From Thiothrix fructosivorans (GTDB lineage: Bacteria; Pseudomonadota; Gammaproteobacteria; Thiotrichales; Thiotrichaceae): a stretch of DNA of 64,000 nucleotides. Below, piece by piece: positions 16,348 to 31,024 of this stretch; position 1 is the first letter of the stretch, and every line of letters starts with the position of its first letter. The notes beneath the pieces are model-generated. The model saw only the letters and a program-made list of their open reading frames with translations. It was not told where the DNA came from and did not search any database. The DNA lies in the NCBI RefSeq assembly GCF_017349355.1, contig NZ_JAFMPM010000008.1:434001-498000 (forward strand), written 5' to 3'. Both the position numbers and the translations under genes were made by a program.

Positions 16348-19300
16348 ATGAAGCGTAGTGTGCAACTTGGGGTTTTGCTGGTGTGTTGGTTGTGGGTGTC
16401 GTTGGTATCAGCGGCGTCTGGGGTGGTTAATCTATCACCCGTTATCGAGGGGGTGCCAGCAACCAGTGTAACGGCAAATTCTACTTACAGTTTTATACCA
16501 ACTGCTAGTGATCCAGAAGGGTCAGTACTGAAATTCAGCATCGCTAAAAAGCCGAAATGGGCAACGTTTGATGCCGCGACGGGGGCATTGACGGGTACAC
16601 CCACTGGTGTGCAAGCAGCGACTTACAGCGGTATTGTGATTACGGTGTCCGATGGCAAACTCAAAAGCAGCTTGCCAGCGTTTAGTATTCAAGTGAATAA
16701 CCCCGCGCCTACCATCAGTGGTACGCCTGCCACCAGCGTACAGGCTAATTCAGCCTACAGTTTTACACCGGATGCCAGTGATGCGAATGGCGACAAGCTT
16801 ACTTTCAGTATTGCTAAGAAGCCTGCGTGGGCAGCCTTTAGCACAACGACAGGTGCATTGACAGGTACACCGCCCAGCGCCAAAGCGGGTCTTTACAGTG
16901 GGATTATTATCACGGTTTCGGATGGTAAAACGAAGGTGAGTCTGCCTGTGTTTAGTATTCAGGTGAATAATCCAGCGCCTACCATTAGTGGTACGCCTGC
17001 AACCAGCGTACAAGCTACTTCGCCCTACAGTTTCACACCAAGTGCCAGTGATACGAATGGTGACAAGCTTACCTTCAGTATTGCTAAAAAGCCTGCGTGG
17101 GCAACCTTTAGTACAACGACAGGTGCATTGACAGGTACACCGCTTGCTAAGCATGTTGGGGTAACCAAGGGAATTAGCATCGCGGTGACTGATGGTAAGA
17201 ATAAAGTCAGTTTGCCTGCTTTTGATCTGCAAGTGTCTGCGGTTGCTCTTAATAAAGCGCCGGTGATTAGCGGTAGGTCTGCGACAACGGTCAATGTGGG
17301 AAGCGCTTACAGTTTTATACCAACCGCTAGTGATGCGGATACAAGTGACATCCTCACGTTCAGCATTACCAACAAACCCACATGGGCAACGTTTGATACA
17401 GCAACGGGGCAGTTGAGTGGTACGCCTGTGTTGGCAGATGTGGGGACGACCAGTGGTATTATCATCAGTGTTTCCGATGGCAAGCAAACAGTCAGTTTGC
17501 CCGCATTTGCGCTGCGCGTGATGGAGTCGATTAACCTCGCCCGCCAGTTTGGGGTGGCAACACAAGGGGCTGATTACGACAGCAGTTCTGCCGCTTCGTT
17601 GGCAATAGATGGCAATGCGAGCACTTTCAACCACACGACTTGTACTGCCCAAAAGAACTGGTGGCAAGTCCAATTACCGAATCCAACCTTGATTTCCAAG
17701 CTAGTGGTTACTAGCCGCAATTCATGGACATCGCGGATCAATGGGGCAGGTGTTTATGTTAGTAATGCTCCCTACAATGGCACGCTGAATGAAAGCGACA
17801 AAGTAGCCACGCTGAGTGGTGTTGCTACCGCGCAAATAACAACATTCAGTACACCAAAGTCAGGGGCGTATGTCATCGTCAAAGCAGCGGCGGACAATTG
17901 TTTGCACATGAGTGAGGTAGAGGTGTATGGAAGCGCACCAGCATCACCACACTTGGATCAATCAGCTTATACTTTCCAGTTGAGTAATAGTACTGCGATT
18001 GGCAAAACGGTGGGTACGGTCAAAGCGGTTGATTACCAGTTGGATAGTATTAGTTATGCGTTGGAGGGGAGTTCGATTCCCTTTGCGATTGATGCACAAG
18101 GTAAAATTACCGTGAAAGCGGCACTGCAAGCGGGTGTCACCTATACCTTTGATGTGGTCGTCAGTGATGGTGCGAATGTTAGCCGTGCGCCCATCACTGT
18201 TAACGTGACAGCCAGCTCGTCGGTGGAAGATGCCTTGCGTACTGGGGATGCCAGCGTTGCTACTAGTGAAGAATTGCTGGATGAGACCATTTCCGCGTTA
18301 GCTAATAAAAAAGCTACCTCGTCATTACTGACCGCGTTGTATGGCTCAGATCCCATTGCCTATGCCCCTGGTAATAGCACCCAATGGCTGAACTTAAAAT
18401 CATGGGTTGATACGACTTATCCGATCTTGACAGGAACGCAAGGCAATACCTTGGCGATGGCAGGCGCAACTGCCAGTACCCGTTATGCTGCTTTTGGTGT
18501 ACCACCGACTGATTTGTTTAAGGCTAACCAGAGTTTAGGTTTTGAAGCACCGTTTAGTCGTTTGCTGGCGTGGTTATTAGCGGGCGAACCTGTCAATACC
18601 GCTGTGTTGACGAATAGCCGTACTATTGCGTTGTCTATGAGTGCTTCGGGATCACGCAGCAATTTCAAAACGTGGATTACTCAGAAGTACCCTAACTGGA
18701 CAGTTGTGGATTGCAATACAGTTTCTGCATTGGCAACTTGCTACAACGCTGCTGCAATGGTGGTGACTGATGGTGGTAGCAGCAGCAGTGCCGATGCGAC
18801 CCCTGTTCGGCAAGCGTTGGCGAATGTGATGATGGCTGGTAAGCCCATTTTGTATTTACATACTGGAACATGGGGTTCTAATAGTGTATCGCTTGCTATT
18901 GCTGATTTGCTGAATTTCAGTCTGCCGTATGGCGGTAATTTTTGGGCAAATGATGCGGCTAATTGGACAAATGTCACGGCTATGCAAACGGCTACTTGGG
19001 AAAAGCAAGGCTTGGCAGGTGTTGAAACGATGCTAAAGCACTTTAAAGCCAATGATTACAGCATCGCTACGCGGAATACAGAGTTCTATCCGGGGGCAAA
19101 TAAGGTACGTGCGGTGATGACATCGTTGGATGAGAGCAAGATCAACCTGTTCCAAAGCAATGAGTCACGTTTGTATCGTTTGTTAGCGCTATTGGGTGAC
19201 AGTTATCGACAGGAAGTCGTTTTCCCGATGGATATGGACGCGACTAATCCCAATGTCTTCCTGAAGTCCTTGTTTACGGATCATGCGGTTTATAATTATC

Positions 19301-20817
19301 GGACTCTGAACCGGGTGCAAGCGGACATGGGGAATTTCAGTCGCAGTGATTTCAGCCATATTACCCCCGTTACCAAAACAGTCACACTGACTAGCCGCCA
19401 AAATTTCCGCGCGGCTGGGGTGTATGCTCTGCCGGGGAAAACTGTTCGTGTTACCCGTACTGATAACAGTAGTACGACAACTAAGGTGTTTATCAATAGT
19501 TTGCGGTCAGGTTCGACGCATGAGTTTGAGGCGTGGGGTTACAAACGTCCCAAATTTTTGCAGTCTGCCCACGTACCGATCAAATCGGGTGAAACCATCA
19601 CCCTCACATCCCCTTATGGTGGTTCGCTACAGCTTGAGTTCAGTACCAATGACCAATCAGTCAGCTTTACCTTTGAACAAGTGGGTGAACATCCGTTCTG
19701 GGATGATACCAGCGACAATGCGACGTTTACCGCAAAGTTGGCGGCGGGTGAATATGATTGGGCGGAGTTTGTAACCCCTGCCTTTGAAATCCATTCCACA
19801 CTGGAAAAAATGCGTGAATCTGCCGCTGATACCCGCTGGGGTGGAACGTTGGAAGGGTTTGCAGCGGCTACCATGCGCTATATTCATAATTTCCCGCACG
19901 TATTGGCTGGCTTCCAAGGGCCTAATATTGATGTTGTACCTGAGATTCATGATTTTGCTACCGCAAATGATTTCACCATTGAAAACTTGGATTTGGTCAA
20001 ACACATGAATGCAGATCAGGCAACTTGCGGTTCTGGTTGTTCCGGCAACCCGTATGATGCGTATTGGGCATTCAGCCCTATCGGTCACGGGGATATTCAT
20101 GAACTGGGGCATGGGTTGGAAAAGAGCCGCTTCCGCTTAGAGGGGTGGAATTATCATGCCTCTACCAACCCTTATTCGTATTACAGCAAAACGCAGTACT
20201 ACAAAACCACGGGTGGCAATCCTGATTGTCAGTCATTGCCCTTTAAAGACGCGTTTGTTGCGTTGCAAGCCAGCATTGGACAAGCTAATCCAGCAGCTTA
20301 TCTGAAAACCAATTACTGGGATGCGGAGAGTGATAACTGGTCGCGTGGTGCGAGTATGACGATTCAGATGATGATGATCGCAGAACACCAAGGTGCATTG
20401 CAGGATGGTTGGCATTTGTTGGCTCGCTTGCATATTCTCGAACGTGAATTCAATCGGGCAAGGAGTGATACAACGACATGGGATGCGAAGAAAACCAGCT
20501 TGGGTTTCGCTAGCTATTCCAAAGCGGAAGCCGATGCTATCAGTAGTAACGATTGGATGGTGATTGCCGTCTCGAAAGTGACAGGGATGGATTACCGCGA
20601 CTATTTCAGTATGTGGGGTCAGGCTTTCAGTACAAAAGCCAATGACCAAGTAGCGGCGTTTAACCATGCTGCTGCTGAACGTCGTTTTTTCATCACCAGT
20701 CCCAATGGTTATTGTAAGGGCGAGGGTTTTGATGGGAACAACTTGCCCGTCAATGGCGGTCAGGTATGGCCGTTAGCAGGTGCTCAGCCACGCTTGATGG
20801 GGGATAGCTTCCGCTAA
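16348..20817 (+). CDS. secreted ImpA-type M60 metalloprotease with Ig-like and F5/8C domains
   Basis: 1489 residues. A signal peptide ends near VSAASG. Four cadherin/He_PIG-like domains follow (about residues 28-392), then an F5/8C carbohydrate-binding domain (about 393-530), a cadherin-like segment (to about 620), an IMPa-type helical region opening VEDALRTGDASVATSEELL, and the M60 gluzincin catalytic domain with HELGH at His1251-Glu1252-His1255. Relatives such as Pseudomonas ImpA cut O-glycosylated proteins. The C-terminal 24 residues (GGQVWPLAG..RLMGDSFR) recur in the next gene. AAAGGGGAG precedes the ATG. Target unknown. Confidence 0.85.
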   Translation: MKRSVQLGVLLVCWLWVSLVSAASGVVNLSPVIEGVPATSVTANSTYSFIPTASDPEGSVLKFSIAKKPKWATFDAATGALTGTPTGVQAATYSGIVITVSDGKLKSSLPAFSIQVNNPAPTISGTPATSVQANSAYSFTPDASDANGDKLTFSIAKKPAWAAFSTTTGALTGTPPSAKAGLYSGIIITVSDGKTKVSLPVFSIQVNNPAPTISGTPATSVQATSPYSFTPSASDTNGDKLTFSIAKKPAWATFSTTTGALTGTPLAKHVGVTKGISIAVTDGKNKVSLPAFDLQVSAVALNKAPVISGRSATTVNVGSAYSFIPTASDADTSDILTFSITNKPTWATFDTATGQLSGTPVLADVGTTSGIIISVSDGKQTVSLPAFALRVMESINLARQFGVATQGADYDSSSAASLAIDGNASTFNHTTCTAQKNWWQVQLPNPTLISKLVVTSRNSWTSRINGAGVYVSNAPYNGTLNESDKVATLSGVATAQITTFSTPKSGAYVIVKAAADNCLHMSEVEVYGSAPASPHLDQSAYTFQLSNSTAIGKTVGTVKAVDYQLDSISYALEGSSIPFAIDAQGKITVKAALQAGVTYTFDVVVSDGANVSRAPITVNVTASSSVEDALRTGDASVATSEELLDETISALANKKATSSLLTALYGSDPIAYAPGNSTQWLNLKSWVDTTYPILTGTQGNTLAMAGATASTRYAAFGVPPTDLFKANQSLGFEAPFSRLLAWLLAGEPVNTAVLTNSRTIALSMSASGSRSNFKTWITQKYPNWTVVDCNTVSALATCYNAAAMVVTDGGSSSSADATPVRQALANVMMAGKPILYLHTGTWGSNSVSLAIADLLNFSLPYGGNFWANDAANWTNVTAMQTATWEKQGLAGVETMLKHFKANDYSIATRNTEFYPGANKVRAVMTSLDESKINLFQSNESRLYRLLALLGDSYRQEVVFPMDMDATNPNVFLKSLFTDHAVYNYRTLNRVQADMGNFSRSDFSHITPVTKTVTLTSRQNFRAAGVYALPGKTVRVTRTDNSSTTTKVFINSLRSGSTHEFEAWGYKRPKFLQSAHVPIKSGETITLTSPYGGSLQLEFSTNDQSVSFTFEQVGEHPFWDDTSDNATFTAKLAAGEYDWAEFVTPAFEIHSTLEKMRESAADTRWGGTLEGFAAATMRYIHNFPHVLAGFQGPNIDVVPEIHDFATANDFTIENLDLVKHMNADQATCGSGCSGNPYDAYWAFSPIGHGDIHELGHGLEKSRFRLEGWNYHASTNPYSYYSKTQYYKTTGGNPDCQSLPFKDAFVALQASIGQANPAAYLKTNYWDAESDNWSRGASMTIQMMMIAEHQGALQDGWHLLARLHILEREFNRARSDTTTWDAKKTSLGFASYSKAEADAISSNDWMVIAVSKVTGMDYRDYFSMWGQAFSTKANDQVAAFNHAAAERRFFITSPNGYCKGEGFDGNNLPVNGGQVWPLAGAQPRLMGDSFR
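16435..17525 (+). repeat. four tandem ~285-bp repeats encoding Ig-like domains
   Basis: Units start near 16435, 16708, 16978 and 17257. Units 2 and 3 are nearly identical at DNA level over long stretches, for example GGTGCATTGACAGGTACACC in both, which points to a recent duplication inside the protease gene. Confidence 0.75.
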
Positions 20818-22369: not shown

Positions 22370-23464
22370 ATGATCGAATTACGGCAAACCTCAAGAGATG
22401 GTGAGCTTCACCTGCATCTGCACGGTGAGTGGACGTTTGCGCAAGTGGTGGCGATTAAAGCGGCATTGCAGCAAGTTCAGCCTAGCGCGGGTACGTCGTT
22501 GGTGGTAGATGCGCAAGCGGTGGCGCGATTGGACGTAACGGCGACGTGGTTTGTTTATCAGCAGGTGCAACGCTGGATGCAGCAAGGCTATACCGTCCGT
22601 TTCGACCATTTCCCCGCCGAATATCTGGGATATTTCGCCGCCACAGCAGCCTCCGACTCTTCTCCCTCCCCCGATAAGGGGAGGCTAGGAGGGGTTTCTT
22701 TCTCTCACTCTCTCACCACGCTCCGTTCTTTCATCACCTTTTTCGGACACAGCCTAGCCGCGTTATTCACCAGCCTGTTTTCCCCACACCTGTTCCGCTT
22801 CCGCGCAGTATTTCACCACGTTTTCACCACTGGTATTAGCGCTGTGCCGATTGTGGCGCTGATTGCTTGCCTGATCAGTATCGTGATTACCTATCAAGGT
22901 GGCGGGCAATTGCGTGATTTGGGGGCGGAAATTTATACGGTGGATATGGTGACGATTTCGGTCTTGCGTGAACTTGGCGTATTGCTGACCGCGATCATGG
23001 TGGCGGGGCGTTCGGGCAGTGCGTTTGCGGCGGAAATTGGGCTGATGAAAACCAATCAGGAAGTGGATGCGTTGCAGGTGATGGGCAAAGACCCGTTTCT
23101 GATTTTGGTCGTGCCGCGTTTGGTGGCGTTGGTGATTGCCTTGCCGTTGTTGACGGTGCTGGCGGACATCGTAGCGTTGGCGGCGGCGGCACTGATTTCA
23201 TCGACGATTCTGGATATTTCGTTTGTGCAGTTTTTTTCCCGTGTGGCGGCGAATATTGAGTTTCGCACCTTCGCCGCCGGTTTGATCAAATCGCCGTTTT
23301 TTGCGGTGGTCATTGCGCTGATTGGCTGTTGGCAGGGGATGCGGGTGACGGGTTCTTCTGCAAGCCTCGGCGAACACACCACTAAAGCGGTGGTCGATGC
23401 AATTTTTGTGGTACTACTACTGGATGCTTTGTTTTCCGTGTTGTTTTATCGGCTGGGGTTTTAG
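22370..23464 (+). CDS. MlaE-type ABC permease with N-terminal STAS domain
   Basis: 364 residues. Residues about 1-95 form a STAS-like domain; about 125-360 form the MlaE permease with GQLRDLGAEIYTVD, RELGVLLTAIMVAGRSGSA and EVDALQVMGKDPF, the conserved coupling stretch. The linker (about 98-118) is encoded partly by a palindromic repeat. It starts an MCE operon that moves phospholipids or other lipids across the envelope. Substrate and direction cannot be told from sequence. Confidence 0.88.
   Translation: MIELRQTSRDGELHLHLHGEWTFAQVVAIKAALQQVQPSAGTSLVVDAQAVARLDVTATWFVYQQVQRWMQQGYTVRFDHFPAEYLGYFAATAASDSSPSPDKGRLGGVSFSHSLTTLRSFITFFGHSLAALFTSLFSPHLFRFRAVFHHVFTTGISAVPIVALIACLISIVITYQGGGQLRDLGAEIYTVDMVTISVLRELGVLLTAIMVAGRSGSAFAAEIGLMKTNQEVDALQVMGKDPFLILVVPRLVALVIALPLLTVLADIVALAAAALISSTILDISFVQFFSRVAANIEFRTFAAGLIKSPFFAVVIALIGCWQGMRVTGSSASLGEHTTKAVVDAIFVVLLLDALFSVLFYRLGF
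22665..22684. repeat. palindromic repeat inserted in the permease linker
   Basis: CCTCCCC and GGGGAGG flank CGATAA. The surrounding CCCTCCCCCGATAAGGGGAG and AGGCTAGGAGGGG look like a mobile intergenic repeat, here translated in frame as SPSPDKGRLGG between STAS and permease domains. Confidence 0.5.
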
Positions 23465-23466
23465 CG

Positions 23467-24195
23467 ATGGAAATGCTGATCGCGATTCACGACCTTGTTA
23501 ACCAATTTGGTACGCAGCGCATTCATGATGGGTTAAATCTGGATATTTACCGAGGTGAGGTGTTGGGAATTGTGGGCGGTTCGGGGTCGGGTAAATCGGT
23601 GTTATTGCGCACGATGTTGGGCTTGAATACGCCGTACAGTGGCACGATTCAGTTTCAAGAGTCTGCGCGGCTGAAACAGCATTGGGGGGTGATGTTCCAA
23701 CGCGGTGCGCTGTTTTCTTCGCTGTCGGTGGCGGACAATATCCAGTTTCCGTTGCGTGAGTTTACGGCACTGACACCGGAGGAATGCCACGCCTTGATGC
23801 TGGTGCGCTTGGCAATGGTGGGGTTGGAGCGCAGTGTTGCCGCTAAATTTCCAGCGGAATTGTCGGGTGGGATGGTCAAGCGCGTGGCATTGGCGCGGGC
23901 GTTGGCACTCGACCCCGTGGTACTGTTTTTGGATGAGCCAACCTCTGGGCTTGACCCAGTATCCGCTGAGGAATTTGACCAGCTTATCGGCACTTTGCAC
24001 CGCAATCTCAAGCTAACGGTTGTCATGGTGACGCATGACTTGGATAGTTTATTCTCAACGTGTGACCGCATTGCGATGCTGGTCGATAAGCACGTAATCG
24101 TGGGGACGTTGCAAGAAATTCTGGCTAACCCACACCCACAAATACAAGCCTATTTCAGTGGCGGACGTGCGCGTGCGCTGCTGCGGGGGAATTGA
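23467..24195 (+). CDS. MlaF-type ABC transporter ATP-binding protein
   Basis: 242 residues. Walker A GGSGSGKS, Q-loop MFQRGALF, signature LSGGMVKR, Walker B VVLFLDEPTSGLD and the switch His in VMVTHDLDS are all intact. It powers the MCE lipid transporter encoded around it. It starts two bases after the permease stop, and its stop directly abuts the TTG start of the MCE gene. Confidence 0.92.
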   Translation: MEMLIAIHDLVNQFGTQRIHDGLNLDIYRGEVLGIVGGSGSGKSVLLRTMLGLNTPYSGTIQFQESARLKQHWGVMFQRGALFSSLSVADNIQFPLREFTALTPEECHALMLVRLAMVGLERSVAAKFPAELSGGMVKRVALARALALDPVVLFLDEPTSGLDPVSAEEFDQLIGTLHRNLKLTVVMVTHDLDSLFSTCDRIAMLVDKHVIVGTLQEILANPHPQIQAYFSGGRARALLRGN

Positions 24196-25098
24196 TTGGA
24201 ACGGGATGCCCACTATTTTTTGGTTGGTCTATTTGTTATCGCCATGGCGGTGGTAGGCTTTTTCTTTGCCAGTTTGTTTTATGACAAACCCTCGACGGCA
24301 ACGCTGGGCTATGACATTCACTTTGATACGCCGGTCGACGGTTTGGAAAAAGGCGGTGAAGTCCGTTACATGGGTATCAAGATGGGCGAGGTGACGCAGG
24401 TTTTTTTATTGCCAGCGCAGCCTTCCCGCGTTGGGGTCAGGGTGATGCTGGAAACGGGAACGCCCGTGAATACGGCGACGGTTGCCACCTTGCGGCAGCA
24501 GGGGTTGACGGGTGTACCGTTTATCAATCTTGCGCAGGATGATGCGCTCAAACCTGCGCCACTGCTGGCTGCGGCAGGACAGACGTACCCCGTGATTCGT
24601 TCCAAACTGACGGAAATGGATGCGTTGATGCAGCAATTACCGGATTTGGAGAAGAATCTGTCGGTATTGCTCAGTGCCGCGAATGAGGTGTTGAATGCTG
24701 AAAATCGTGCTAATTTCGCGGGATTATTGCACAATATCAATGTCGCATCGGCGGATTTGCCTGAATTAATCGCTAATCTAGAGAAAACTAGCCTGCAATT
24801 GCGAACCTTAATGGCACATGTGGATACGGCTCTCCAGCGTTCCGAGCGCGGCTTGAGTAGCAATATGCAGGAACTAACGGCAACGTTACGTGCCATGCGC
24901 ACCACGTCACAGCATCTTGATACGCTGGTGCGCGACATTGATCGGGTAGTGGTGGATAATGGCGGTAATATTCAGGGGGTGCTGGAGGAATCACGTAAAA
25001 TGGCGGCGTCTATTCGTCAATTGAGTGAAAGCCTAGAGCGTAATCCTTCGCAACTTATTTATCAGCCTGCACCGCAAGGCGTGGAGTTACCACCGTGA
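24196..25098 (+). CDS. MlaD/MCE-domain substrate-binding protein
   Basis: 300 residues from a TTG that follows the ATPase stop with no gap. One N-terminal membrane helix (residues 6-26), then an MCE domain (about 38-118) with FDTPVDGLEKGGEVRYMGIK. The C-terminal half is a long helical or coiled-coil region, as in Pqi/Yeb-like MCE proteins. It should form a periplasmic hexamer that shuttles lipids. The ABC permease and ATPase are adjacent; no MlaC-type carrier gene follows. Confidence 0.88.
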   Translation: MERDAHYFLVGLFVIAMAVVGFFFASLFYDKPSTATLGYDIHFDTPVDGLEKGGEVRYMGIKMGEVTQVFLLPAQPSRVGVRVMLETGTPVNTATVATLRQQGLTGVPFINLAQDDALKPAPLLAAAGQTYPVIRSKLTEMDALMQQLPDLEKNLSVLLSAANEVLNAENRANFAGLLHNINVASADLPELIANLEKTSLQLRTLMAHVDTALQRSERGLSSNMQELTATLRAMRTTSQHLDTLVRDIDRVVVDNGGNIQGVLEESRKMAASIRQLSESLERNPSQLIYQPAPQGVELPP

Positions 25099-25739
25099 AA
25101 TTAGCAAAATACCCCAGTGGTTTTATATTACGCTATCTTATTTTGTCTTCAATTTTACTGTTTTTCATAACGGCGTGTGCATTTCCATTGAATAGCCATG
25201 TACCGACAGAACAAGTGTACCGCTTAGCACCACGGGTGGGGGTAATGCCGCAACGCGCACTGGCGCATTTGTACTTGCCCCGCATTCAGGTATCACCTGC
25301 TTTGGATACATCACGTATCACGCTAGTTAGACCGGGATTCCAGCAGGATTTCATTGCAAACAGCCGTTGGCCGGATAGTTTGGCGATTTACCTGCACTCG
25401 GTTATGTTGGATACGCTGTCACACAGTGAGGGTTTTCTCTCTGTTTCTGACCAATTGCTCAGTAATAACGAGGTTTACAAGCTGTTGTTGCGAGTATCCG
25501 CTTTTCATGTTGAATATCCTCCGTCAGGGCAGGGCAGAGCGGCAGTCGTGGTGGGGTTAGAGGCGATTCTCGTGCGAGAACAAGATCAACGTATGATAGG
25601 GCAATACCGCGCTGATATTCGCAAAGAGAATACTCAAGTGAGCACGAGCAAAATCGTGGAGGCTTTGAATCAAGCATTAGGCGAGGGTGTGACATCGTTG
25701 ATGACTGATATGGCGAACGATCTGCCGATTTTGCGTTGA
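25095..25739 (+). CDS. ABC-type transport auxiliary lipoprotein (PqiC-like)
   Basis: 214 residues from a GTG overlapping the MCE gene by four bases. Signal with lipobox ITAC near residue 27. The mature part resembles the PqiC/DUF330 family (EQVYRLAPR, LPRIQVSPALDTSRITL). It probably docks the MCE protein at the outer membrane. Last gene of the operon, converging on a small minus-strand gene. Confidence 0.8.
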   Translation: MKLAKYPSGFILRYLILSSILLFFITACAFPLNSHVPTEQVYRLAPRVGVMPQRALAHLYLPRIQVSPALDTSRITLVRPGFQQDFIANSRWPDSLAIYLHSVMLDTLSHSEGFLSVSDQLLSNNEVYKLLLRVSAFHVEYPPSGQGRAAVVVGLEAILVREQDQRMIGQYRADIRKENTQVSTSKIVEALNQALGEGVTSLMTDMANDLPILR

Positions 25740-25906
25740 ATACGGTAAGGTTTATGTCTCTCTACTCCTTGTCGGATGGCTATATTGTTGATGGCAGCCA
25801 TCACGCACTGTTTTAGATAGTGTGGTGGCGGTTCATCACGGTTGATAGCATGAAGGTTTTCCAATAGTGTATTTAACATCCTCTCTGCATCAGCAGTTTT
25901 TTTCAT
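25670..25906 (-). CDS. small hypothetical protein coupled to sigma factor
   Basis: 78 residues, soluble, helical N-terminus (AERMLNTLLENLHAI). Its ATG overlaps the sigma-factor stop by ATGA. The position just after an ECF-like sigma gene is usual for anti-sigma factors, but there is no membrane helix or zinc motif here, so that role is only a possibility. The 3' end overlaps the transport lipoprotein gene by 70 bases. Confidence 0.5.
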   Translation of the reverse strand: MKKTADAERMLNTLLENLHAINRDEPPPHYLKQCVMAAINNIAIRQGVERHKPYRIQRKIGRSFAISVINDVTPSPNA

Positions 25907-26679
25907 CGGTGTCTCTCAGTTTCATCCAGCCTGCATTTGACTAAATCAATGAGCTTCTTGTTCCTGTATTTGACTTGTTCTAGTGTCAAGCCAAGGTTAG
26001 TCGCCATTTCCTGCATTGAATATCCATAACAATATAATTGATTAAATGTTTCTATAGCAAGGTTAGTGTCTTCCTCTACCTTTTTTTTGCGGTGAAGCGC
26101 CAGTTTCTTTTCTGCAATACCTGTAGACTTATGTACCAATTCTTTTGCTTTTGCTAAGGGTTTCATAATCATTCTGATTACATCATCTTGTTCGGCTATT
26201 TTGTCAGGGCAGGCATGATCACTGCCGATAATGCTGTCTTTATCATTATTTTCCTCATGATCAAGAGCTATATTGGTCTTGTCAGGGCAGCTACGCAGGT
26301 AATCAATGTAGGATGTCTCTAATATGGTGTAAAGATAACCTACTTGATACTTGCTAGGATCTTCACTGTCGATAACCCGTAAGTAGAGTTTGACAAATAC
26401 CTCTTGTACCAGTTGCGCGGCTAGTTGAATATTTTGACATTTACTGAGTGCCTTATTGTATATTCTTTTTTCATGTCGATCATAAAAGTGTTCAAAGGCT
26501 AATTTGTCACCTTTGGCCACTAAGTAGAGCAATTCTCCATCAGATAGATGATATGTTTCACAATTGATGGTCTGACGGACTGTTTCTAGCTTTTTCCTAC
26601 TGGGAAAAACAGCGATGTTATTATCTAGTATGGTCATATAAGCATCTTTATAAATAGGTATTGGTATGCCACGTTTCAT
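25903..26679 (-). CDS. ECF-like sigma-70 family factor
   Basis: 258 residues. Region 2 is recognised in LAFEHFYDRHEKRIYNKAL and QLAAQLVQEVFVKLYLRV followed by YIDYLR. Region 4 is the HTH YSMQEMATNLGLTLEQVKYR. The linker between them is longer than usual (about residues 130-195) and Lys-rich near 165-200. The sequence is more AT-rich than its neighbours. It sits downstream of three exported-protein genes on the same strand and may control them. Confidence 0.8.
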   Translation of the reverse strand: MKRGIPIPIYKDAYMTILDNNIAVFPSRKKLETVRQTINCETYHLSDGELLYLVAKGDKLAFEHFYDRHEKRIYNKALSKCQNIQLAAQLVQEVFVKLYLRVIDSEDPSKYQVGYLYTILETSYIDYLRSCPDKTNIALDHEENNDKDSIIGSDHACPDKIAEQDDVIRMIMKPLAKAKELVHKSTGIAEKKLALHRKKKVEEDTNLAIETFNQLYCYGYSMQEMATNLGLTLEQVKYRNKKLIDLVKCRLDETERHR

Positions 26680-26748
26680 ACCTAATTATAAAGCCTGCTT
26701 GTTCACTACCTCTTAAAATACCCGATGAAGCGTTTCTCCGTTGGTCGC

Positions 26749-27261
26749 TTACTGGCGGAAATGTTGTTCCATCATGCGCCGTAGTTCAGCTTGATAGGCC
26801 GTTGTACCTGTATTGCCATGCTCAGTTTGATCTTCCGCAATTTGTATGCTTTTCGCTGCTATCGCACTCAAGTCCGTCCATGTGGTAGCGTCCGGTGGAT
26901 TGTTGCCTGATTGCATGACTATTGTATTTTGTTGAGAGATGACGGTTGATCTACTGCTCGTTGCCTGCTTTTCTGCCATTTTTATCGCTTGATTGGCTAT
27001 GTCGTGCAAATCATTGTCTGACGAGTGTTTATTGCTTGAAATGTTTGGTTTTTTAGGGACTGGCTTTACTGTGGATGTACCGTGAGCAGGCGTAAGCGAC
27101 GGTTTGGGTATGTGTTTACTGTCTGAGACGGGGGCTTGCTCTGTTTTTATGAAATCTCCTGCAACTGAGGTATTGCCGAGCATTTGACACCCCCCTCCTA
27201 AAAGGGGAGTAATCAACAATACTGTGCGAATACTGACTGTAAAACTTGATTTAATATTCAT
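26749..27261 (-). CDS. hypothetical lipoprotein
   Basis: 170 residues with a signal peptide and lipobox LGGGC near residue 25. The mature part is Ser/Thr/Pro/Lys-rich and apparently disordered, then holds two similar helical segments, IANQAIKMAEKQ and IAAKSIQIAEDQ. The ATG at 27261 is preferred over a TTG at 27291. No family recognised. It lies between the sigma factor (69 bases) and an exported protein (about 57 bases). Confidence 0.6.
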   Translation of the reverse strand: MNIKSSFTVSIRTVLLITPLLGGGCQMLGNTSVAGDFIKTEQAPVSDSKHIPKPSLTPAHGTSTVKPVPKKPNISSNKHSSDNDLHDIANQAIKMAEKQATSSRSTVISQQNTIVMQSGNNPPDATTWTDLSAIAAKSIQIAEDQTEHGNTGTTAYQAELRRMMEQHFRQ

Positions 27262-27318
27262 ATTCACGCTTCTATAATTTTCGTCACTCAAGGATAAGTC
27301 AGAAGAAAAAACACATCA

Positions 27319-27663
27319 TTACAGGCTTTCACCAAAGGATACTTTAGAGGTGTATTGAATATCGGAAGTACTTTCTTCCTCTGCCTTCTTAGTATTAGCA
27401 GTAGGTGCTGTTTGTGTGAGTTTTGTAGTATCTACTTGTACAACTTTAGCATTAACACAAACTTGTTTCATACCATCGACATCATAACCGCAAAATGCCT
27501 GCTCATCTTCATAGGTGTCAACCGTATAAGTGACGACGGGTTTTGCGGGTGGAGGGGGAGGGCAATCTGTTTTACAGTGACCTTTTGCATGGGAAATACC
27601 TGAAAAACTCATCAGTAATACAGAAGAAAATAGCGCATTAATCATTTTTTTTGAGATCATCAT
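27319..27663 (-). CDS. exported Cys/Pro protein, unknown
   Basis: 114 residues with a signal peptide ending SHA. The mature start KGHCKTDCPPPPPAKP is followed by VVTYTVDTYEDEQAFCGYD and QVCVNAKVVQV. The four Cys suggest disulfides. The VTY...DxxG...C..VxxKVVxV layout is shared with the next exported protein upstream, so the two may be paralogues. The ATG at 27663 has AAGGA at good spacing. Confidence 0.6.
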   Translation of the reverse strand: MMISKKMINALFSSVLLMSFSGISHAKGHCKTDCPPPPPAKPVVTYTVDTYEDEQAFCGYDVDGMKQVCVNAKVVQVDTTKLTQTAPTANTKKAEEESTSDIQYTSKVSFGESL

Positions 27664-27708
27664 GGTCATATCCTTGATGTTTTTCTATGGTTAAAACTAA
27701 AATCAGCG

Positions 27709-27741
27709 AGATCAAGTCTACCTGAGTATAAAACTTGATCT
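27709..27741. promoter_or_regulatory. 9-bp inverted repeat between exported-protein genes
   Basis: AGATCAAGT (27709-27717) and ACTTGATCT (27733-27741) are exact reverse complements around 15 bases. It lies in the 90-base gap between two co-directional genes; an mRNA hairpin that differentially protects or attenuates transcripts is plausible. Confidence 0.45.
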
Positions 27742-27753
27742 GATATGGGCTGT

Positions 27754-28086
27754 TTATTGTGCGTAACGTTCTTCAGTGACCGTTGCCTTACTCTGTTTGG
27801 TTGTATGCGTTTCCCATGTGCTACTGCCGCCTGTTGATGAGGTAATATCTACGCCAACCTTAACGGACTTACCAGCAACATCCAAACACCCTAAAACCTT
27901 ACCGTTGGCATCCATTGGTAATAGTTGCTCATGAAATTCGCCGTATTGCGGTTCATGGTAAGTCACTGTGCTGGCTGTGGTACTGCTAGCGCATTTGCCG
28001 CAATCGCCTGCTATAACAGAACCTGCGCTACTGAACGCGATTACTGCGGTGATGCCCAATGTAACTAAGCGAATTTTGCTTGTCAT
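27754..28086 (-). CDS. exported Cys-containing protein, unknown
   Basis: 110 residues with a signal peptide ending VIAGD. Mature start GDCGKCASS holds a CxxC, then STVTYHEPQYGEF, DANGKVLGCLDVAGKSVKV and a Thr/Ser-rich tail. AAGGAG precedes the ATG. First gene of the exported-protein/sigma cluster. No family recognised. Confidence 0.6.
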   Translation of the reverse strand: MTSKIRLVTLGITAVIAFSSAGSVIAGDCGKCASSTTASTVTYHEPQYGEFHEQLLPMDANGKVLGCLDVAGKSVKVGVDITSSTGGSSTWETHTTKQSKATVTEERYAQ

Positions 28087-28164
28087 ATCATATTCTCCTT
28101 CAATCAGTGGATGTTAGGTTTGCTATGTGTCTTACTGATAGAACGGATGAGAGAGTATTTATGT

Positions 28165-28184
28165 GGAAAATAAGTTACTTTTCC
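28165..28184. promoter_or_regulatory. inverted repeat in the cluster promoter region
   Basis: GGAAAA and TTTTCC flank TAAGTTAC in the 177-base gap between the exported-protein gene and ispG. It may be a regulator site for the minus-strand cluster; no promoter elements can be assigned with confidence. Confidence 0.3.
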
Positions 28185-28263
28185 GTGAAAAATTTGGATG
28201 TCACTGCCAATTATCGCATGATCGGGCATAATGTCTGCAATCTTGCAACACACTGAAAACAAC

Positions 28264-29487
28264 ATGGCAAACAATCACATCATTCCACGCCACCGCACTG
28301 TTCCTGTGAAGGTGGGCAATGTCACCGTCGGCGGCGAATTTCCTGTCGTCGTACAATCCATGACCAATACCGATACAGCGGATGCGGTGCGTACTGCGGC
28401 GCAATGTGCCGAATTGTTCCGTGCAGGTTCGGAGTTGGTACGCATCACCGTCAATTCCTTGGAAGCGGCGCAAGCTGTCCCCGAACTCCGCGAACGCCTC
28501 GACAAAATGGGCTGCGATGTACCGCTGATTGGCGATTTCCATTTCAACGGGCACAAGTTGCTGACTGCCGTTCCTGAATGTGCGCAAGCACTCGCCAAAT
28601 ACCGCATCAATCCCGGCAACGTCGGGCGTGGCAAAAAGCGTGATGAACAATTCGCGCAAATGATCGAATTTGCCTGCCGCTACGATAAGCCTGTGCGTAT
28701 CGGTGTGAATTGGGGTTCGCTCGATCAGGAATTGCTGGCTCGCAATCTGGATGACAATTCCAAACTGGCGCAACCGCTGGAATTGTACGATGTGATGCAC
28801 GCCGCGCTGATCGAATCCGCGCTGACCAGTGCCGCCAAAGCCGAAGAATACGGTTTGCCACACGATCACATTATTCTGTCGTGCAAACTCAGCGAAGTGC
28901 AGGGTTTGGTGCGTGCCTACCGCGATCTGGCGAGCCGTTGTGATTACCCGCTGCATCTCGGTTTGACCGAAGCAGGCATGGGTAGCAAAGGTATCGTGTA
29001 TTCAACAGCGGCACTCGCGCTGTTATTGCAAGAAGGGATTGGCGATACTATCCGTATTTCCCTCACCCCTGAACCGCACGCCAAACGCGAAAAAGAAGTG
29101 ATCGTTGGGCAAGAAATTTTGCAGGCACTGGGTTTGCGCTCGTTCACGCCGCAAGTGGTGGCTTGCCCCGGTTGTGGGCGTACCTCCAGCGACTATTTCC
29201 AACGACTTGCCGAGCAAATCCAAAACTGGCTGCGCGAGCAAATGCCGGTGTGGAAAGATCAATACGCAGGCGTGGAAAGCATGTCGGTCGCGGTCATGGG
29301 CTGTGTGGTTAATGGGCCGGGCGAAAGCAAACACGCTAATATTGGTATCAGTTTACCGGGCAGCGGCGAAGTTCCGGTTGCCCCCGTTTATGAAGACGGA
29401 CACAAAACCGTTACGCTGAAAGGCGATAATATTGCACAAGAGTTTCAGGCACTGGTCGAAACTTACGTGCAAAAAACGTATGGATGA
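28264..29487 (+). CDS. ispG: 4-hydroxy-3-methylbut-2-en-1-yl diphosphate synthase
   Basis: 407 residues from ATG 28264, or 418 from ATG 28231. IspG reduces methylerythritol cyclodiphosphate in the MEP isoprenoid pathway using a [4Fe-4S] cluster. Visible motifs are [22 protein letters not shown] and the cluster ligands [11 protein letters not shown] and [10 protein letters not shown]. Full length and intact. The following hydrolase gene begins 20 bases later. Confidence 0.95.
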
Positions 29488-29506
29488 CCCCAAAGGAGAA
29501 CGTTAC

Positions 29507-30286
29507 ATGAAAAAAATATCCCTGCTGGCAATCGCTGGCTTATCCCTGCTGGCAAGCAACGTCATGGCAGCCGTCAAAAGCGAAGCCGTACCCTATGAAC
29601 ACGACGGTACAAAATTCGTCGGACAAATGTATTACGACGATGCCATCACCGAAAAACGCCCCGGCGTATTGGTCATCCACGAATGGTGGGGTTTGAACGA
29701 CCACGCCAAAAACCGCGCCGAAGCATTGGCTAAACTGGGCTACGTGGCGTTTGCGGCGGATATGTACGGCGAAGGCAAATCCACCGACAAGCCAGAACAA
29801 GCCAAGGAATGGATGACGGAAGTGACCTCCGATGTTGACGCATGGCGTGCCACCGCCAATGCGGGTCTGGAACAGCTCAAGAAAAGCGACAAAGTAGACG
29901 CGGCAAAACTCGCGGCGATTGGCTATTGCTTCGGCGGCGGCACGATCTTGCAGATGGCTTACAGCGGTACGGATATTGACGGCGTGGTGAGCTTCCACGG
30001 TTCATTGCCGTCAGCACCGGATGGTACGGAAATCAAAACCAAAGTGCTGGCGTTCCACGGCAATGCGGATGCGATGGTGCCGCCTGCAACCGTGAATAAG
30101 TTTACGGAACAGATGGAAAAAACGGGTGCGGATTGGCAATTTGTCGCGTATGGCAGCGGCGTGCGTCACGGTTTCACCAATCCGAATGCGGGTAAGTACG
30201 GCATTGAAAACCTGAAATACGATGAACAAGCTGATCAGCGTTCTTGGGCAGGAATGCAGGCGTTTTTCAACGAAATCTTCAAGTAA
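29507..30286 (+). CDS. dienelactone hydrolase-family protein, exported
   Basis: 259 residues with a signal peptide ending VMAAV. The alpha/beta hydrolase triad fits dienelactone hydrolases: nucleophile Cys in IGYCFGGG, Asp in HGNADAMVP and His in VRHGFTNPN. A signal peptide is less usual for DLH and implies a periplasmic substrate. AAAGGAG precedes the ATG. Likely co-transcribed with ispG. Confidence 0.88.
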   Translation: MKKISLLAIAGLSLLASNVMAAVKSEAVPYEHDGTKFVGQMYYDDAITEKRPGVLVIHEWWGLNDHAKNRAEALAKLGYVAFAADMYGEGKSTDKPEQAKEWMTEVTSDVDAWRATANAGLEQLKKSDKVDAAKLAAIGYCFGGGTILQMAYSGTDIDGVVSFHGSLPSAPDGTEIKTKVLAFHGNADAMVPPATVNKFTEQMEKTGADWQFVAYGSGVRHGFTNPNAGKYGIENLKYDEQADQRSWAGMQAFFNEIFK

Positions 30287-30295
30287 GGTGCAGCG

Positions 30296-31024
30296 TTAAC
30301 GCGCCACGCGGAAGCCACGGAAAATCTGGCGACCGCTCGGATAATCTTTGACTCGATAGGCGGCGCGTAAATAGCGCGGTCTGTCATTCCATGAACCGCC
30401 ACGCAGCACGCGCTCGTGGTGGTTGCCTGCTTCTTCCCACGCTTGTGCGTTGACGGGTGCGCCGTGGTAGGAATCGTGCCAGCAATCTTGTACCCATTCC
30501 CACACATTACCGCATAAGTCGTGCAAGCCGAACGCATTCGCGGGGTATGTGCCGACGGGTGTGGTCATGCCGTGCTGCATCGCGTGGTTGGCGTGTTGCG
30601 CGGTTGCCTGCATTCCCCACGGGTACGCCGCGTTTATACCGCCACGGGTGGCGTATTCCCATTCCGCTTCGGAAGGTAGGCGGTAATGTACGCCGTTCAA
30701 GGCACTGAGCCAGCGGCAGTAGGCTTGCGCATCGTCCCAACTTACATTAATCACCGGATGCTTGCCGCGTCCCCAGCCTTGGTCGTCGGGCAGTGGAAAG
30801 CCCATTGCTTCGCAAAATGCATCGTATTCTTCAAAAGTAACGGGGTAGCGCCCTAGTGCAAAGGCGGCAATGTACACATAACGCGGCGGGCGTTCGTTGA
30901 TGGTGCAACCGCCTTCCACAGCGTCGCGTTCATCTAGCCCGCCCATGAGAAAACGACCCGGTGGAATGTTGACCATGCGGGGCAAGGGGAGGGCAATGTT
31001 GTAGTCGGGTAATGTTGCATTCAT
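30296..31024 (-). CDS. formylglycine-generating-enzyme/SUMF1-like protein
   Basis: 242 residues. The fold is shown by NIPPGRFLMGG, FALGRYPVTFEEYDAFC, HPVINVSWDDAQAYC, RLPSEAEWEYATRGG, GLHDLCGNVWEWVQDCW, VLRGGSWNDRP and a C-terminal IFRGFRVAR. Family members make formylglycine in sulfatases or have other roles; no sulfatase is adjacent, and the active-site Cys pair of true FGE is not clearly present, so the reaction is uncertain. The ATG at 31024 is chosen; the longer frame is not protein-like. Confidence 0.85.
   Translation of the reverse strand: MNATLPDYNIALPLPRMVNIPPGRFLMGGLDERDAVEGGCTINERPPRYVYIAAFALGRYPVTFEEYDAFCEAMGFPLPDDQGWGRGKHPVINVSWDDAQAYCRWLSALNGVHYRLPSEAEWEYATRGGINAAYPWGMQATAQHANHAMQHGMTTPVGTYPANAFGLHDLCGNVWEWVQDCWHDSYHGAPVNAQAWEEAGNHHERVLRGGSWNDRPRYLRAAYRVKDYPSGRQIFRGFRVAR

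What the first reader, a model, noticed from the sequence alone, without database searches (positions are those of the whole stretch)
25670..28200. Unrecognised sigma-factor locus with three exported proteins
Five minus-strand genes in close series: two small exported Cys proteins that look like paralogues, a disordered lipoprotein with duplicated IAxxAIxxAExQ helices, an ECF-like sigma factor with a long linker, and a coupled small protein. Inverted repeats lie in the first two gaps. A self-controlled envelope structure or surface-stress system is possible and I cannot match it to a known one.
Basis: partly seen in the sequence, partly recalled or inferred. Interest (0 to 1): 0.62.

Follow-up and report, generated by a model that had tools for sequence, protein, structure and literature searches.

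The report
Thiothrix-only exported-protein operon with sigma factor
A small gene cluster found so far only in some Thiothrix sulfur bacteria makes three exported proteins of unknown kind, and in two of the four genomes that carry it a private, unusually built sigma factor probably switches it on; it is real and new, but its function is not known.

Summary
The locus is real: an accessory cluster of (inferred) Thiothrix. Three exported proteins, C1 (secreted, CxxC), C2 (secreted, four Cys) and a lipoprotein, stand in the same order in 4 of 16 genus genomes. C1 and C2 are in no other genome of 63 in the family; the lipoprotein has only marginal matches elsewhere. C1, C2 and sigma show purifying selection; the lipoprotein is weakly constrained. 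The sigma factor is in only two of the four (52% identical). It carries about 26 extra residues ahead of region 4: 98 residues against 60-75 in 37 other ECF rows. In those two genomes the C1 upstream region shares an identical 15-base word plus TCCGTT at equal spacing, found once per genome. A hairpin just upstream of the likely sigma start is kept in both. The fifth gene (78 aa) is not conserved, and no anti-sigma factor was recognised.

Best reading: an optional, single-promoter ECF sigma controlling an orphan envelope module. New protein families, known type of architecture.

The parts
27754..28086 (-). C1: secreted protein (110 aa), signal peptide then CxxC and a core with a third Cys and three invariant His
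   Evidence: Orthologues in G009, G005, G013; pN/pS 0.19-0.48; number of CxxC units 1, 1, 5, 3 in G000, G009, G005, G013. Signal peptide judged by eye
27709..27741 (-). Intergenic hairpin between C1 and C2 (9-nt arms, 15-nt loop)
   Evidence: a hairpin can form in the same gap in all four genomes with different sequence; in register in G009
27319..27669 (-). C2: secreted protein (116 aa) with four invariant Cys
   Evidence: Orthologues in G009, G005, G013; pN/pS 0.33-0.53. Signal peptide judged by eye
26749..27261 (-). Lip: lipoprotein (lipobox LGGGC) with two helix repeats; ORF opens at 27291 but the likely start is 27261
   Evidence: sigma-less genomes have one helix copy (by eye)
26646..26693 (-). 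Inverted repeat (two 16-nt arms, 94% complementary) directly ahead of the conserved sigma start
   Evidence: fold z -4.06 here and -2.70 in G009; arms have no other place in the genome with fewer than 2 mismatches
25903..26637 (-). ECF-type sigma factor (244 aa from the conserved start; ORF opens at 26679)
   Evidence: Pfam Sigma70_r2 27.9 bits over cut-off 24; TIGR02937 44.4 over 42.9; orthologue in G009, 52%
26053..26130 (-). About 26 extra Lys/Glu-rich residues ahead of sigma region 4
   Evidence: Present in both orthologues; linker length 98 against 60-75 in 37 other ECF rows
25670..25906 (-). 78-aa ORF overlapping the sigma stop (ATGA); last 22 codons antisense to the neighbouring gene
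   Evidence: No match in Pfam, NCBIfam, PHROGs, PADLOC, plasmids or among ORFs of the fetched loci other than itself; not kept in G009
28142..28173 (-). Proposed sigma-dependent promoter of C1: TTATTTTCCACATAA, 11 bases, TCCGTT
   Evidence: 15-base word identical in G009 (1 of 200 shuffles as long); composite found once each in G000 and G009 with no mismatch

Best explanation
An accessory, Thiothrix-specific envelope module. C1 and C2 are exported to the periplasm or surface, and Lip is lipid-anchored and offers helices for binding. The three probably form one extracytoplasmic assembly, with Cys pairs forming disulfides or holding a metal. In two lineages a dedicated ECF sigma factor drives the single promoter ahead of C1, and probably its own gene by read-through. 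It appears to be held in check not by an anti-sigma factor but at its own leader, where a conserved hairpin spans the presumed ribosome-binding region (or a palindromic operator spans a -10-like sequence). A hairpin after C1 would keep C1 output above that of the later genes. Shown: gene set, order, selection on C1, C2 and sigma, distribution, shared upstream word, predicted hairpins. Inferred: sigma-promoter pairing, leader control, joint assembly, role.
For: C1 and C2 found in the same 4 of 63 family genomes. Lip strong (E 2.8e-21 or better) in the same four; three further genomes only at E 0.0056-0.00995, over the N-terminal part. Order and strand kept in all four. Close sigma orthologue only in G000 and G009. 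The promoter composite, up to 2 mismatches allowed, occurs without mismatch once in each of those two; two of the other 14 genus genomes have one 2-mismatch place each, twelve have none, reversed-pattern control 0 of 16. G005 and G013, which lack sigma, share a different 17-base word upstream of C1. Recognition helix identical in the two sigmas. Leader hairpin: 2 of 1000 shuffles as stable in G000, 12 of 1000 in G009. No anti-sigma recognised.
Against: The trio persists without the sigma in 2 of 4 genomes, so the sigma is not needed for it. Only two sigma-carrying genomes are known, so the promoter word and leader hairpin rest on one pair. A -10-like GTT(C/A)TA stretch is shared by all four genomes, sigma or not. 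Region 4 scores below Pfam's cut-off (11.7 against 24.1). The 78-aa ORF has the ATGA overlap common for sigma/anti-sigma pairs. AlphaFold2 gave no usable fold for C1 or C2 (pLDDT 34.5 and 35.8). The Lip gene shows weak constraint (pN/pS up to 0.69).
Confidence: 0.45

Rival explanations
1. Ordinary ECF pair: the 78-aa ORF is a short soluble anti-sigma factor (or the remnant of a longer one), translationally coupled to the sigma by the ATGA overlap, and controls it post-translationally.
For: ATGA overlap and, by eye, an N-terminus of anti-sigma flavour; in G009 the corresponding DNA looks deleted, with a short matching tail still open.
Against: No family match, no plasmid match at E up to 10, only itself among 2929 ORFs of the fetched loci (next E 2.4), not kept in G009, no transmembrane segment by eye, tail antisense to the neighbour gene.
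Confidence: 0.2
2. Metal-buffering module: C1 and C2 bind thiophilic metal outside the cytoplasm, under an ECF sigma, working like the Caulobacter SigF copper response or bufferins.
For: Invariant CxxC plus one Cys and three His in C1, four invariant Cys in C2, five CxxC units in G005. Caulobacter SigF and its regulon are induced by copper (PMC8224329, passages).
Against: No DUF2282 match in C1, C2 or Lip and no DUF692 enzyme among the neighbours scanned; no metal transporter adjacent. Cys can equally form disulfides.
Confidence: 0.15
3. Structural surface module: C1 with its variable Cys-Pro repeats is a cross-linked component of the Thiothrix sheath, holdfast or a surface layer, anchored through Lip.
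For: Variable repeat number in C1, secretion signals by eye, genus restriction, hairpin after C1 as after abundant subunits (recalled); IMPa/M60-like surface-protease genes near the cluster in all four genomes.
Against: 12 of 16 genus genomes lack the trio. IMPa/M60-like genes also occur in 6 of the 12 genomes without it, so co-occurrence is not significant (hand calculation, about 0.12).
Confidence: 0.2
4. Passenger DNA: the cluster is a fast-recombining insert at a variable site, and the sigma is an unrelated hitchhiker acting elsewhere or not at all.
For: Patchy presence; low G+C of the sigma (0.38, ORF mean 0.526); synonymous divergence between G000 and G009 near saturation in the cluster against dS 0.38 in ispG.
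Against: C1, C2 and sigma are under purifying selection; order kept; promoter word matches sigma presence and has no second place in the genome within 2 mismatches.
Confidence: 0.2

Closest known systems
Non-canonical ECF sigma factors without anti-sigma factor (reviewed in PMC8999054; abstract, outline and passages seen)
   Same: ECF-type region 2 and a weak region 4; no recognised anti-sigma factor; extra sequence in the sigma
   Different: The extra sequence lies ahead of region 4 and has no Cys, rather than being a C-terminal extension as in CorE or ECF41; ECF group not assigned here
Caulobacter SigF-NrsF regulon and bufferin operons (PMC8224329 passages; bufferins from search listings)
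   Same: ECF sigma in a cluster with small uncharacterised, partly periplasmic proteins
   Different: No NrsF-like anti-sigma, DUF2282 or DUF692 counterpart found; no family match shared
Single-operon cell-surface ECF systems such as FecI-FecR (recalled)
   Same: Sigma acting on essentially one nearby promoter (here inferred)
   Different: No FecR-like anti-sigma and no TonB-dependent receptor in the cluster

Membership tests
ECF sigma factor | Sigma region 2 | tested here: met
   Sigma70_r2 27.9 bits, cut-off 24; TIGR02937 44.4, cut-off 42.9
ECF sigma factor | Sigma region 4 of usual layout | tested here: inconclusive
   Pfam region 4 11.7 bits, cut-off 24.1; HTH aligns, but about 26 extra residues precede it
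ECF sigma / anti-sigma pair | Recognisable, co-conserved anti-sigma factor | tested here: not met
   78-aa ORF matches nothing and is not conserved; interaction itself not testable here
Bufferin / SigF copper operon | DUF2282 precursor and DUF692 (MNIO) enzyme | tested here: not met
   No such Pfam match in C1, C2, Lip or in the neighbouring window genes scanned
Lipoprotein | Lipobox before an invariant Cys | tested here: met
   LGGGC, VGAGC, TGSGC, TGGGC in the four orthologues (by eye; no signal-peptide program was available)
C1/C2 as one paralogous family | Profile similarity of the mature domains | tested here: not met
   hhalign probability 0.4, E 0.13, with shallow four-row profiles
Autoregulated sigma operon | Sigma-dependent transcription of C1 | not testable with these tools
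   Only the shared upstream word

The most novel reading that the evidence does not exclude
A genus-private extracellular assembly made of three protein families unknown elsewhere, run by a one-promoter sigma factor whose region 4 is preceded by a new insert and whose amount is set by a leader hairpin instead of an anti-sigma factor. The module is gained, lost or exchanged between strains, with or without its sigma.
Probability: 0.3. Interest if true: 0.6.

Novelty: new variant of a known kind. Interest (0 to 1): 0.42.

Why it matters
If right, it shows how a sigma factor can be added to or lost from an existing envelope module, and gives a small natural case of one sigma, one promoter and no anti-sigma. 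It would also point to new surface proteins of Thiothrix, filament-formers known from sulfidic waters and treatment reactors. As it stands it is a well-defined orphan cluster with a testable control model.

Tried and rejected
AlphaFold2 on C1 and C2 with four-row alignments gave pLDDT 34.5 and 35.8, so no fold search was run. PDB sequence searches: C1 none, C2 one chance match at E 0.41. The first genome-contig scan, with the sigma alignment, found no relative. Viral contigs (C2) and plasmids (C2, 78-aa ORF) gave nothing; the sigma had two plasmid hits at about 28% identity. Rfam gave one chance match far below its cut-off. A first promoter pattern had the wrong spacer and found only 3-mismatch places (6 against 3 in the control); the corrected pattern is. 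Consensus scans gave 9 promoter-like sites against a shuffle mean of 7.2, and 4 terminator-like sites against 2.0. Linkage to the IMPa/M60-like gene is physical but not significant by co-occurrence.

Rejected: demonstrable paralogy of C1 and C2; a second-gap inverted repeat in this window; bufferin membership.
Full report
What is there. Five minus-strand ORFs fill 25670-28086 between an ABC-transport auxiliary lipoprotein gene (PF03886) and ispG (PF04551 GcpE). From the promoter side they are C1, C2, Lip, sigma and a 78-aa ORF.

Distribution. Of 63 family genomes, C1 and C2 occur in the same four, all in this genus: 4 of 16 in the genus. Lip is strong in the same four; three more genomes reach only E 0.0056-0.00995, over the N-terminal part. 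C2 is in 1 of 369 sampled class genomes, the window's own. The close sigma orthologue is in one other genome, G009 (E 1.1e-75); the next best of the 57 genomes searched is 6.5e-10, and 34 of 57 have some match at E 0.001. In 369 class genomes 29 pass 1e-8, the window's own included. The best other is 3.9e-13, and none of the 28 other listed matches reaches beyond position 181 of the 269-position profile, that is, into region 4. G005 and G013 carry C1-C2-Lip with no sigma.

Selection and divergence. pN/pS is 0.19-0.53 for C1 and C2, 0.34 for sigma, and 0.52-0.69 for Lip. Between G000 and G009 the cluster is near synonymous saturation (dS 1.60 for C1, 1.71 for C2; pS 0.82 for sigma), while ispG has dS 0.38 and the dienelactone-hydrolase-like gene beyond it 0.42. 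The adjoining auxiliary gene is also saturated (pS 0.76); the IMPa/M60-like gene further left is not (dS 0.56). So the cluster and its neighbour look like a zone of exchange. G+C is low but uneven: sigma 0.38, C2 0.40, Lip 0.45, C1 0.48 against an ORF mean of 0.526 (32 ORFs of 250 aa or more, the sigma itself included).

Site. In cluster-free relatives, nucleotide similarity stops at 25632-25713 in nine and at 25391 and 25437 in two (G008 has no auxiliary-gene match). It resumes at 28198-28200 in nine of twelve and at 28247-28267 in three. In the four spacers read (G006, G001, G010, G015) the site holds one ORF of about 120 aa instead. A relative of that ORF lies just upstream of C1 in G005 and G009. 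In G013 the cluster is not beside ispG but lies between another auxiliary gene and an Mla-type operon.

Proteins. C1: signal peptide (by eye), CxxC, then a 70-residue core with one Cys and invariant His at 44, 52 and 94; the CxxC count is 1, 1, 5 and 3 in G000, G009, G005 and G013, with Pro-rich spacers in the latter two. C2: four invariant Cys. Lip: lipobox and an IAxxA..IAE helix, present twice in G000 and G009 and once in G005 and G013 (by eye). C1 and C2 cores are not detectably related. No library gives C1, C2, Lip or the 78-aa ORF a match near a curated cut-off. Best were TatB_1 for C1 (18.8 of 100 bits), a TrxA model for C2 (16.2 of 140) and CoA_E_activ for Lip (11.9 of 125.4).

Sigma. 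Region 2 passes Pfam's cut-off, region 4 does not. From the DYLR motif to the recognition HTH it has 98 residues in both orthologues; the 37 other aligned ECF rows have 60-75, median 68. These rows were found by similarity to this protein in loci L003-L030 and L113-L122. They include the same gene twice (L003/L115) and a near-identical pair (L114/L117) that ends before region 4, whose lengths say nothing about the linker. In the eight complete rows of the printed part, the surplus is a 26-residue Lys/Glu-rich block just ahead of region 4. MATNLGLTLEQVKYR is identical in both orthologues.

Control signals. Ahead of C1, G000 and G009 share TTATTTTCCACATAA (1 of 200 shuffles gives a word as long), followed 11 bases on by TCCGTT. 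The composite, allowing 2 mismatches, occurs without mismatch once in each of the two. G005 and G007 have one 2-mismatch place each, elsewhere, and 12 of 16 have none. G005 and G013 share a different 17-base word upstream of C1 (0 of 200); the four mixed pairs share words no longer than chance allows (11-32 of 200). A GTT(C/A)TA stretch is common to all four. Ahead of sigma, a 16-nt inverted repeat folds with z -4.06; the aligned leader of G009 folds with z -2.70. Its arms have no other place in the genome with fewer than two mismatches. The upstream ATG lies at the edge of the loop between the arms and in G009 runs into a stop after ten codons, so 26637 is the likely start. RNA switch or DNA operator cannot be told apart from two sequences. 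Between C1 and C2 each of the four genomes can form a hairpin (z -2.0, -1.4, -2.1, -3.0), weak singly.

The 78-aa ORF. It overlaps the sigma stop by ATGA, but no relative was found. In G009 most of its DNA is missing and the sigma frame runs on. It may be a lineage-specific anti-sigma or a remnant.

Surroundings. In the window an IMPa/M60-like protein gene (16348-20817; IMPa domains, one HELGH motif; M60-like_N at 22.2 bits is just under its cut-off of 23), an F5/8-type protein gene and an Mla-type ABC operon precede the cluster. IMPa/M60-like genes lie close to the cluster in all four carriers but also exist in 6 of 12 non-carriers.

Reading. The safest statement is an orphan, genus-private envelope module that is sometimes paired with its own sigma. 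The control model (one promoter, leader control, no anti-sigma) is the best fit but rests on two genomes. The biochemical role is open; metal binding and a cross-linked surface component are both compatible. Two literature searches, 'Thiothrix' with 'sigma factor' (4 papers, all listed) and 'Thiothrix' with 'sheath' and 'genome' (10 of 36 listed), showed no title or abstract start that describes this cluster. The genus comparison PMC8570282 has no occurrence of 'sigma factor' or 'lipoprotein' in its main text. Papers seen: PMC8999054 abstract, outline and passages; PMC8224329 and PMC8570282 passages; the others as search listings only.

Noticed in passing
window 22370-28200 against 28200-30500: Sharp boundary of divergence: in G009, G006, G010 and G001 ispG and the next gene are 92-99% identical to the window (dS 0.30-0.62), while the auxiliary lipoprotein and, in G006 and G010, the Mla-type genes to the left are near synonymous saturation, which suggests recombination or allele exchange.
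   Followed up: partly
window 28199-28258; G004, G009, G012, G014, G015: The segment upstream of ispG is strongly conserved, but in several relatives about 200-500 bases separate it from the next conserved stretch at the ispG start.
   Followed up: no
window 16348-20817; L043, L042, L041: IMPa/M60-like protein with Ig and F5/8 domains; two matches each in G009 and G013, in two divergent pieces in G005.
   Followed up: partly
L089 2378-2749 (G006), L041 7980-8354 (G005) and equivalents: An ORF of about 120 aa without Pfam match sits divergent from ispG in the relatives read and is missing at this site in the window.
   Followed up: partly
L041:7028-7552, L042:7136-7543: CxxC units with Pro-rich spacers in C1 vary in number (5 in G005, 3 in G013, 1 in the window and G009), like an expanding repeat.
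   Followed up: partly
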